Positions 21,483 to 23,576 of a stretch of 64,000 bases of DNA are shown here, in pieces. Source of the stretch: Salinibacterium sp. G-O1 (lineage in GTDB: Bacteria; Actinomycetota; Actinomycetes; Actinomycetales; Microbacteriaceae); contig NZ_JASISV010000002.1 in assembly GCF_030063305.1 (NCBI RefSeq), forward strand, positions 248,001 to 312,000, given 5' to 3'. Under the pieces are notes generated by a model that saw only the letters and a list, made by a program, of their open reading frames with translations, was not told the DNA's origin and did no database searches. A program made the translations under genes and the position numbers. Position 1 is the first letter of the stretch, and every line of letters begins with the position of its first letter.

Positions 21483-21488
21483 TAGCCT
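21483..21488 (+). promoter_or_regulatory. -10 element (TAGCCT) for the exonuclease-NUDIX gene
   Basis: TAGCCT ends six bases before the ATG at 21495; only a weak GAGG-like stretch overlaps the spacer. Confidence 0.5.
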
Positions 21489-21494
21489 GAGGTC

Positions 21495-23102
21495 ATGAAC
21501 AATTGGGGCCAACTCGGCGTCTTCGATCTCGAGACCACCGGGGTCGATGTCGACACCGCACGGATCGTGTCAGCCTGCATCGCAATCCTCCGCCCGGACG
21601 GCTCGGTCGTTGCCAGATGGGATTGGCTCGCCGACCCCGGTATCGAGATCCCGGCGGGCGCCTCGGCCGTCCACGGCATCACGACGGAGCGTGCCCGGTC
21701 GCTCGGCCGAAACGCCAAAGACGTCGTCGCCGAAATCAGTCAGAGCCTGCGGGTGCTTTTCGCGCTCGACATTCCCCTCGTCGTCTACAACGCGCCCTAT
21801 GACCTCACCCTTCTCGACCGCGAGTGCCGACGCCACGGGATTGAACCCCTCGCTGTGGCGTCCCCGGTAATCGACCCGCTGGTGCTCGACAAGTTCGTTG
21901 ACAAGTTCCGCAAAGGTAAGCGCACGCTGGAAGCCGCGGCAGCGCTCTACGGTGTCGAGCTGGATGAGGCGCACGACGCCGGCGCTGACGCGATCGCCGC
22001 CGGTCGGGTGGCGCTCGCGCTCGGCGCCGCGTATCCCGATCAGTTGGATGTGTCCCCAGCCGAACTGCATGTCAGCCAGGTCACGTGGTACGCCGATCAG
22101 GCGGCGAGTTTCGCCGACTACATCCGCCGGGTAAAGGGTGACAAAGACTTCGTCGCCGACACGATCTGGCCGGTGCGCACGACAGACCTTTCCGCGAGCA
22201 TCCAGGACACCCAGCCAATCGCGGCGCCTTCGCCCCGACCCAGCCTGCGCGTGCCTCACCTCGACTTTGATACCGGAGTGCTCGTATTCGACAGGGTCGC
22301 GCTCGAAGCTGCGCCTGTACGGGCGAGCGCGAGCGTGTCTGAGGTGGAGGCCGTGCAGTTCCGCGACGTGGAACCCGTAATCGCGCCCGACGAACCCACT
22401 GACACGGTCGAGCCGGACGAGTTCGATCGCCTCATCGAGCCGGATGTCTCCGACTCTGGCCCTGAGGCCGGCTATGAGCCCCTGGTGCTCGTGGAGCCAT
22501 TCGTCGAGGAGCCACAAGCATCCGGCGACGACCCCGACCTCCTGTGGAACGTGTTCGACCTTGATGCCCTTGCGGATGAGCCAGGCCCGGACGCAGAGCC
22601 AGCATCGTTTGACCAGCAACTCGATCTCGACCCAGTCTCAGCAGACTCTGACAACCAGGATGCGGCACCACCCGCGCGCCCGACGCTTCGCCCGACGGTG
22701 CTTCGGGTCGCTGCCGCCATCATCACTGATCCGGATGGGCGGACGCTGCTCGTGCGCAAGCGAGGAAGTTCCTCGTTCATGCAGGCTGGCGGCAAGATCG
22801 AACGCGGCGAGAGTGCCGTCGTGGCGCTGTCACGTGAACTTCTCGAAGAGATCGGGCTCGAACTGGATCTCGGTGAGACCGAATACCTCGGTAGCTTCAG
22901 GGCCGAGGCTGCCAACGAGTCGGACACGGTAATCCGGGCCGAAGTATTTGCGATGATGACCTCCCTCACCCCCATCGCTTCGGGCGAGATCGAGGAACTC
23001 ATCTGGATCGACAGCGATGAGCCAGCTGGAATCGAGCTCGCACCTCTCACGCGCGACACGATCCTGCCCCTCTGGGTGACTCGCCGCGCCTCCAGGTTCT
23101 AG
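21495..23102 (+). CDS. DEDDh 3'-5' exonuclease fused to a NUDIX hydrolase
   Basis: A 535-residue two-enzyme protein. Residues 1-225 are a DnaQ-like exonuclease: ExoI FDLETTG (Asp11, Glu13), ExoII YNAPYDLTLLD (Asp103), ExoIII H-x4-D (His160, Asp165). Residues about 230-398 are a low-complexity linker rich in Asp, Glu and Pro. Residues 400-535 are a NUDIX domain with a complete box, G433-x5-E-x7-REL-x-EE-x-G-L455. The first half should degrade single-stranded DNA or RNA ends, the second a nucleoside diphosphate derivative such as an oxidised nucleotide; both substrates are inferred. The frame is unbroken. A terminator follows at 23152. Confidence 0.9.
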   Translation: MNNWGQLGVFDLETTGVDVDTARIVSACIAILRPDGSVVARWDWLADPGIEIPAGASAVHGITTERARSLGRNAKDVVAEISQSLRVLFALDIPLVVYNAPYDLTLLDRECRRHGIEPLAVASPVIDPLVLDKFVDKFRKGKRTLEAAAALYGVELDEAHDAGADAIAAGRVALALGAAYPDQLDVSPAELHVSQVTWYADQAASFADYIRRVKGDKDFVADTIWPVRTTDLSASIQDTQPIAAPSPRPSLRVPHLDFDTGVLVFDRVALEAAPVRASASVSEVEAVQFRDVEPVIAPDEPTDTVEPDEFDRLIEPDVSDSGPEAGYEPLVLVEPFVEEPQASGDDPDLLWNVFDLDALADEPGPDAEPASFDQQLDLDPVSADSDNQDAAPPARPTLRPTVLRVAAAIITDPDGRTLLVRKRGSSSFMQAGGKIERGESAVVALSRELLEEIGLELDLGETEYLGSFRAEAANESDTVIRAEVFAMMTSLTPIASGEIEELIWIDSDEPAGIELAPLTRDTILPLWVTRRASRF

Positions 23103-23193: not shown

Positions 23194-23451
23194 CTAGTCC
23201 TTCTTGGTGCCGAAACCTGAGTAACGCGAGTTGAACTTCTCAACGCGTCCGGCGGAGTCCATGATGCGCTGCTTGCCGGTGTAGAACGGGTGCGACTCTG
23301 ACGAGATCTCGACGTCGATTACGGGGTACGTGACACCGTCGAGGTCGATCGTCTTCTCGCTGGTGGCGGTCGAACGGGTAAGGAACGTGGCGCCCGACGC
23401 GAGGTCGCGGAAAACGATCGCGTTGTACGTGGGGTGGATGTCGGTCTTCAT
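23194..23451 (-). CDS. rpmE2: 50S ribosomal protein L31 type B
   Basis: An 85-residue L31 starting [16 protein letters not shown] and containing [31 protein letters not shown]. It has no cysteines, so this is the zinc-free (C-minus) type B form, which in many bacteria replaces the zinc-binding L31 when zinc is scarce. Upstream codons to 23559 are open but lack family similarity; the ATG at 23451 has AAGGAA eight bases upstream. No Zur site is recognisable in the short leader. Confidence 0.96.
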
Positions 23452-23576
23452 GAACGTTCCTTCAAATAGATGTCTTGCGCGAGAGGATCTTGCGCGAGGG
23501 AGAGCTTGATGAATGAGGGAGCGACGAGCGCTCAAGGCCAGCTCACGCGGAGCCGACATAACAGACTACCAAATAT

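What the first reader, a model, noticed from the sequence alone, without database searches (positions are those of the whole stretch)
21495..23102. DnaQ-like exonuclease and MutT-like NUDIX hydrolase fused in one protein
One unbroken 535-codon frame holds a complete DEDDh exonuclease (Asp11, Glu13, Asp103, His160, Asp165) and a complete NUDIX box (Gly433-Leu455), joined by an acidic, proline-rich linker of about 170 residues. Both families include classic anti-mutator enzymes: proofreading or end-trimming nucleases and oxidised-nucleotide sanitation. A physical fusion suggests a coupled nucleic-acid end-processing and nucleotide-cleaning activity, or NUDIX hydrolysis of the released product. 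I do not know of this fusion as a characterised system. The link to mutation avoidance is inference.
Basis: partly seen in the sequence, partly recalled or inferred. Interest (0 to 1): 0.85.

Follow-up and report, generated by a model that had tools for sequence, protein, structure and literature searches.

The report
Exonuclease and NUDIX enzymes fused together
An actinobacterium makes one protein that joins a DNA-type 3' exonuclease to a nucleotide-cleaving NUDIX enzyme; the pairing is real, is kept intact in many relatives and seems to have been fused twice, but what it does in the cell is untested.

Summary
Window 21495-23102 (+) encodes one unbroken 535-residue protein: a DEDDh exonuclease of NCBIfam subfamily PRK07942 (287 bits, cut-off 186), a 174-residue, mostly disordered linker, and a complete NUDIX domain. 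It is not an artefact: 30 genomes in eight genus groups of the family carry a single-frame fusion. The five exonuclease residues are kept in 29 of 30, five NUDIX-box residues in 30 of 30; both halves show purifying selection in eight pairs tested. Five relatives carry the domains as adjacent genes, four with a clear stop/start overlap. One genome near these has a second, separate fusion with only a short linker. The main fused gene also appears to have replaced the native exonuclease in the window's genus, at the same chromosomal site. Elsewhere the same exonuclease subfamily is fused to a FEN-type 5' nuclease, and the same NUDIX subfamily to a uridine-kinase-like domain. I read it as a DNA 3'-end-trimming exonuclease flexibly tethered to a nucleotide-housekeeping NUDIX hydrolase. 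Mutation avoidance is plausible but untested; MutT-type 8-oxo-dGTP specificity is not supported. My paper searches showed no description of it.

The parts
21495..23102 (+). whole fused gene, 535 aa (stop included in coordinates)
   Evidence: 29 further single-frame homologues
21495..22178 (+). DEDDh exonuclease domain, residues 1-228, PRK07942 subfamily
   Evidence: 287.4 bits, cut-off 186; Pfam RNase_T; pLDDT over 90 in all 23 ten-residue blocks of residues 1-230
22179..22700 (+). acidic, proline-rich, mostly disordered linker, residues 229-402
22206..22229 (+). conserved linker motif DTQPIAAP, residues 238-245 (DTxP[IL] in 29 of 30 fused proteins; possible docking site, function unknown)
   Evidence: 27 by pattern, 2 by eye from the same output
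22701..23099 (+). NUDIX domain, residues 403-535
   Evidence: mean pLDDT 94.6 for residues 395-535 folded alone
22791..22859 (+). NUDIX box G433-L455
19699..21423 (+). upstream neighbour, trehalose-synthase-like gene (name recalled from its sequence, not tested); synteny marker only
   Evidence: found upstream of the exonuclease in 44 of 53 loci
23194..23559 (-). downstream neighbour, ribosomal protein L31 type B-like gene (name recalled from its sequence, not tested); synteny marker only
   Evidence: found downstream in 53 of 53 loci

Best explanation
A two-headed housekeeping enzyme. The N-terminal DEDDh domain is an actinobacterial repair-type 3'-5' exonuclease that trims damaged, mispaired or ragged 3' ends on DNA (inferred). 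The C-terminal NUDIX domain hydrolyses non-canonical or surplus nucleoside triphosphates, or a similar NDP-X compound, to monophosphates (inferred from subfamily and nearest solved relatives). The domains are held together by a flexible linker rather than a shared active site (predicted), so the fusion works mainly by keeping both activities at one place and in one-to-one amount (inferred). Shown here: the fusion, intact active sites, purifying selection on both halves, adjacent and overlapping gene pairs in relatives, a second fusion, and an exonuclease tree that conflicts with vertical descent in the window's genus. Not shown: substrates, DNA versus RNA, and any effect on mutation rate.
For: Both active sites kept and both halves constrained in 8 pairs. 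Coupled gene pairs: the NUDIX start overlaps the exonuclease stop (GTGA or ATGA) in L126, L127, L128 and L129; L160 has a possible GTG start that overlaps the stop by more bases. Two fusion lineages: the main clade (28 fused exonucleases plus 11 unfused ones of the genus, 99/91; its 29 NUDIX domains 99/92), and G286, which groups with three overlapping pairs by exonuclease (97/92) and with all five pairs by NUDIX (97/88) and has only a short linker without the motif. DNA side: the same subfamily is fused to PF02739+PF01367 5' nuclease in 8 of 8 g91 loci read, chosen for long frames; three were tested, 3 of 3 positive by Pfam and at 242-258 bits for PRK07942, cut-off 186. Solved relatives: by sequence PolC, DnaQ domain, DinG; among the top 50 by fold DinG, PolC, DnaQ domain, TREX1/2, ExoI, RNase T. 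Nucleotide side: best solved relative of the NUDIX is E. coli CTP pyrophosphohydrolase NudG, E 1.3e-14, also Foldseek rank 1; the same NUDIX subfamily follows a P-loop domain in 12 of 12 f12 loci read, chosen for long frames, the one tested being uridine-kinase-like below the curated cut-offs. Flexible tether.
Against: No activity is known to me for either half of these subfamilies. Coupling is not essential: 13 of 27 genomes of the genus have the exonuclease without the NUDIX in frame, and only 24 of 349 family genomes were found fused or adjacent (55 NUDIX loci unread). In G062 all five exonuclease residues are gone while the NUDIX box is intact, so there the NUDIX must act without the exonuclease. 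The NUDIX is far from solved enzymes (33% identity to NudG in the Foldseek alignment; no NudG, MutT or RppH cut-off reached), so its substrate is a guess. RNase T and RppH are among the structural matches. The chromosomal neighbours give no repair link.
Confidence: 0.5

Rival explanations
1. An RNA-decay enzyme: the NUDIX half removes a 5' cap or pyrophosphate from RNA (like RppH or NudC) and the DEDDh half degrades the RNA from its 3' end.
For: RppH, Dcp2 and NudC structures are among the top 50 Foldseek matches of the NUDIX domain and RNase T among those of the full model; both activities are used in RNA decay (established knowledge).
Against: By sequence profile NudG and MutT proteins rank above RppH and Dcp2 (1.3e-14 for NudG against about 1e-8 to 1e-6 for the latter). 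The exonuclease subfamily's other fusion partner is a 5' nuclease of the Pol I/FEN kind.
Confidence: 0.2
2. The fusion is nearly neutral: two housekeeping enzymes in one transcription unit became one frame, with no functional coupling beyond equal expression.
For: Overlapping gene pairs give an easy route to fusion; exonuclease genes without the NUDIX are common; the linker is 64 to 174 residues in the 17 of 30 proteins where the script measured it and longer in at least one other (L115), without common sequence outside the DTxP region.
Against: The fusion persists in several genus groups with both sites intact and the linker motif kept in 29 of 30; a second fusion arose in a separate lineage.
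Confidence: 0.22
3. A scaffold or regulatory protein in which one half senses a nucleotide ligand and controls the other half.
For: G062 keeps a decayed exonuclease half in frame with an intact NUDIX; the conserved short linker motif suggests docking or control.
Against: The exonuclease set is intact in 29 of 30 and the tested NUDIX set in 30 of 30; no domain arrangement is confidently predicted (pTM 0.54).
Confidence: 0.05

Closest known systems
PRK07942 (NF005927) 'DNA polymerase III subunit epsilon', stand-alone actinobacterial exonuclease
   Same: Exonuclease half is a clear member (287 bits, cut-off 186), at the same chromosomal place as the stand-alone genes
   Different: Stand-alone members read here end near residue 230; here a linker and a NUDIX domain follow in frame. 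I read nothing that gives the subfamily a function
E. coli NudG/Orf135 (PDB 2rrk, CTP pyrophosphohydrolase)
   Same: Best solved relative of the NUDIX half by profile and fold
   Different: Stand-alone; model NF007834 scores 35.5 bits against cut-off 156; an Asp near its end is Thr/Ser here
MutT / MTH1 8-oxo-dGTP hydrolases
   Same: NUDIX box and fold
   Different: Below the MutT cut-offs: 25.8 against 97.9 and 24.1 against 148 bits
DnaQ-type exonuclease fused to other repair domains: Cho/UvrC-like (passage of PMC1839093), DinG (model dinG_rel), DnaQ-DinG-RecQ (passage of PMC1274311)
   Same: A DnaQ-type exonuclease used as a module in repair fusions
   Different: The partner there is an endonuclease or helicase, here a NUDIX hydrolase
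DUF429 RNase H-like domain with NUDIX (passage of PMC3985635)
   Same: An RNase H-like fold co-occurring with NUDIX
   Different: DUF429 is another family, not a DEDDh exonuclease

Membership tests
PRK07942 exonuclease subfamily | Score over the curated NCBIfam cut-off | tested here: met
   287.4 bits, cut-off 186
PRK07942 exonuclease subfamily | DEDDh active-site residues intact | tested here: met
   D11, E13, D103, H160, D165 in the window; 29 of 30 fused proteins
Replicative Pol III epsilon proofreader | Over the cut-off of dnaQ_proteo, PRK05711, PRK06309 or PRK06310 | tested here: not met
   41.5 against 222.7; 38 against 196; 57.2 against 245; 38 against 236
Replicative Pol III epsilon proofreader | Binds the polymerase alpha subunit | not testable with these tools
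   needs a binding assay
NUDIX hydrolase superfamily | Pfam NUDIX over cut-off and intact NUDIX box | tested here: met
   44.3 bits, cut-off 21.1; E439, R447, E448, E451, E452 in 30 of 30
MutT 8-oxo-dGTP diphosphatase | Over an equivalog cut-off (TIGR00586, NF008044) | tested here: not met
   25.8 against 97.9; 24.1 against 148
NudG pyrimidine (d)NTP diphosphatase | Over the cut-off of NF007834 | tested here: not met
   35.5 against 156
RNA pyrophosphohydrolase RppH | Over the cut-off of the RppH model listed (NF001934) | tested here: not met
   18.5 against 241 (which showed 25 of 36 families)
NUDIX enzymes generally | Substrate specificity | not testable with these tools
   needs assays

The most novel reading that the evidence does not exclude
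The PRK07942 exonuclease is a shared 3'-end module of a so far undescribed actinobacterial repair system: it is fused to a FEN-type 5' nuclease in one family and to a NUDIX hydrolase here, so that in the fused protein clean-up of the nucleotide pool and 3' trimming of DNA are done at the same repair site by one molecule, docked through the conserved DTxP linker motif.
Probability: 0.22. Interest if true: 0.8.

Novelty: new variant of a known kind. Interest (0 to 1): 0.52.

Why it matters
I found no role assigned to it. Its fusion partners, NUDIX here and a FEN-type nuclease elsewhere, are functional hints that make direct tests possible. If true, this would be a physical link between nucleotide sanitation and 3'-end processing in a phylum where MutS-MutL is absent in almost all members (PMC5290159, abstract in the listing; that paper describes another mismatch repair pathway there).

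Tried and rejected
Sequencing or assembly artefact: rejected, the fusion is in many independent genomes.

Long frames as a sign of further exonuclease fusions in the family: 20 more loci with long NUDIX frames had no exonuclease within about 2 kb (0 of 20), and ten loci (L152-L159, L161, L162; flanks up to 1.5 kb) had none. Of 109 family genomes with a NUDIX match, 19 are fused and 5 adjacent; of the other 85 I read 30 and left 55 unread.

Wider search: the NUDIX half over 296 genomes of the phylum gave 5 genomes at 1e-17, one of them the window's own; the other four were not read for exonuclease. Phages: 115 of 50,697 records match, none covering 80% of the query. Plasmids: 62 of 72,556, none covering 80%. 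The order sample (297 genomes) was read only at the loci named in this report, so a fusion elsewhere in the order is not excluded.

Whether the 11 exonuclease-only genomes of the genus lost the NUDIX or never had it: unresolved. The best tree nests them among the fused, but a tree that holds the 28 fused together is not rejected (p-AU 0.33). No NUDIX remnant was seen by eye in the 60 bases after their stop (11 of 11), and the exonuclease-only loci gave no NUDIX hit at 1e-8 in their 1.5 kb flanks.

One or two origins of the NUDIX pairing: one origin is not rejected (p-AU 0.457).

A kinase-substrate reading of the DTQP motif: one paper search (listing only), not followed; dropped as speculation.

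Full report
OBSERVATION. Window 21495-23102 (+) is one open frame of 535 codons. Pfam finds RNase_T (residues 9-170) and NUDIX (404-510), each over its cut-off; NCBIfam places the first half in subfamily PRK07942 at 287.4 bits, cut-off 186. The linker is residues 229-402, 174 long, 23% acidic and 14% proline. AlphaFold2 gives two confident domains and low confidence at 272-388, with pTM 0.54, so no reliable arrangement of the domains. The genome holds 11 NUDIX and 3 RNase_T matches, so this is one enzyme of several of each kind.

CONSERVATION. A scan of genome contigs returned 80 loci; 11 (L003-L013) encode the fusion in one frame, from records named Salinibacterium, Rhodoglobus, Leifsonia or unnamed actinobacteria, among them the isolates S. 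xinjiangense, S. soli and S. metalliresistens. In the window's genus all 27 genomes have the exonuclease and 14 of 27 have the NUDIX in the same frame. In a sample of 349 genomes of the family (Microbacteriaceae, by recall from the record names), 339 match the fused query and 109 have a NUDIX match at 1e-15; 19 of 349 are fused and 5 of 349 have the two genes adjacent, with 55 NUDIX loci unread. Together this is 30 fused genomes in eight genus groups (g1, g10, g33, g37, g42, g49, g59, g67). D11, E13, D103, H160 and D165 are kept in 29 of 30; the exception, G062, has lost all five, stays below the PRK07942 cut-off (56.8 bits) and shows no RNase_T match, but has a normal NUDIX domain. E439, R447, E448, E451 and E452 of the NUDIX box are kept in 30 of 30. 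In 8 pairs that I chose, dN/dS is 0.08-0.18 for the exonuclease, 0.09-0.21 for the NUDIX and 0.14-0.40 for the linker (linker alignments are rough and dS is near saturation in some pairs).

LINKER MOTIF. Right after the exonuclease, DTxP[IL] is kept in 29 of 30 proteins (27 by pattern, 2 by eye); only G286 lacks it. It starts at residue 238 or 239 in 26 of the 27 found by pattern and at 181 in the shortened G062 protein. The parts of the linker alignment that I saw show no other shared stretch beyond this region. Its role is unknown.

HISTORY. In L126, L127, L128 and L129 the exonuclease stop overlaps a GTG or ATG start of the NUDIX frame; L160 has a possible GTG that overlaps by more bases. 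On a careful exonuclease tree (67 rows, G062 left out) 28 fused and 11 unfused genes of the window's genus form one clade, 99/91, with the G132 gene pair next to it, 97/93; the G286 fusion falls with three overlapping pairs instead, 97/92. NUDIX domains agree: 29 main fused, 99/92; G286 with the five pairs, 97/88; one origin of all 35 is not rejected, p-AU 0.457. So there were two fusion events or, less simply, one fusion followed by re-splitting. An RpoB tree (27 of 30 genomes, quick method, weak root) puts the window's genus with g38, g43 and g53 (SH-aLRT 95), not with the other fused genera; it does not itself recover the genus as one clade, since g38 falls inside. The exonuclease data reject all 27 genes of the genus as one clade (p-AU 0.0003) and also the genus together with g38, g43, g53 and g40 (p-AU 0.00005; g40 was not in the RpoB tree). 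Two genomes of the genus, G018 and G009, carry an exonuclease of the g40/g43 type. In all 53 loci compared the gene is followed by the L31-like and ABC genes and preceded by the alpha/beta-hydrolase-like gene; the trehalose-synthase-like gene lies between in 44 of 53 (at least one genome is present twice). The simplest reading is that the fused gene replaced the native one in situ by horizontal transfer. The groups were chosen after seeing the trees, so the p values are descriptive.

PARTNERS ELSEWHERE. I read 11 exonuclease loci of the order chosen mainly for long frames: in 8 of 8 from genus g91 (family f7) the exonuclease lies C-terminal to a 5' nuclease in the same frame, in 0 of 3 from families f10 and f12. 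Three of the eight were tested, all with PF02739 and PF01367 and PRK07942 at 242-258 bits. I read 12 NUDIX loci of family f12, chosen for long frames: in 12 of 12 the NUDIX follows a P-loop domain (by eye); the one tested resembles uridine kinase below the curated cut-offs. One f6 locus read in the same way had none (L192). These partners point to nucleic-acid repair for the exonuclease and nucleotide metabolism for the NUDIX.

FUNCTION. The solved relatives of the exonuclease by sequence are PolC, a DnaQ domain and DinG (4 sequences), and by fold also TREX1/2, ExoI and RNase T (top 50 shown). The NUDIX set shows its own signature (VRK, FMQxGGK, AANE, LAPL; 39 sequences), and its best solved relative is E. 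coli NudG, but no NudG, MutT or RppH cut-off is reached among the 25 of 36 families shown. An Asp of NudG (chain position 123; residue 118 and a role in base recognition are recalled) aligns with the Thr/Ser of LAPLT. DEDDh enzymes release monophosphates, which are not NUDIX substrates (established knowledge), so a relay of product from one site to the other is unlikely. I commit to a flexibly tethered DNA 3'-end trimmer plus nucleotide hydrolase at 0.5; RNA decay 0.2; nearly neutral fusion 0.22; regulatory scaffold 0.05.

LITERATURE. Searches aimed at this fusion in the held open-access library: 4 of 4 hits listed; 5 of 5; 20 of 495; 15 of 102; 6 of 6; 10 of 96. None of the listed titles and abstract openings describes it. 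I saw passages found by term in PMC5389931 (Nudix clan), PMC7824862, PMC12926913, PMC1839093, PMC3985635 and PMC1274311, and the abstract of PMC5636811. Subscription journals and web domain databases could not be searched.

VERDICT. A real, conserved, uncharacterised domain fusion with good comparative evidence that the pairing is meaningful; function is inferred only.

Noticed in passing
L265-L272 (G500, G594, G373, G391, G448, G574, G642, G422; family f7, genus g91): PRK07942 exonuclease fused to a FEN-type 5' nuclease in one frame, like a Pol I without the polymerase; 8 of 8 loci read by eye, 3 of 3 tested by Pfam and NCBIfam.
   Followed up: partly
L173-L184 (12 genomes of family f12): Same NUDIX subfamily behind a P-loop domain in one frame, 12 of 12 loci read by eye; the one tested is uridine-kinase-like below curated cut-offs.
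   Followed up: partly
L150:1498-2613 (G062, genus g37): Fusion whose exonuclease half has lost all five catalytic residues while the tested NUDIX-box residues are intact.
   Followed up: yes
window 22206-22229 and homologues: Short motif DTxP[IL] kept in 29 of 30 linkers.
   Followed up: partly
phage records, e.g. JX006077.1 and NC_073474.1: 115 of 50,697 phage records match, many of them Gordonia and Microbacterium phages; the ten listed match the exonuclease half only.
   Followed up: no
window 21483-21497: TAGCCT lies just upstream of the ATG and could be a -10 box of a leaderless transcript; seen by eye, not tested.
   Followed up: no
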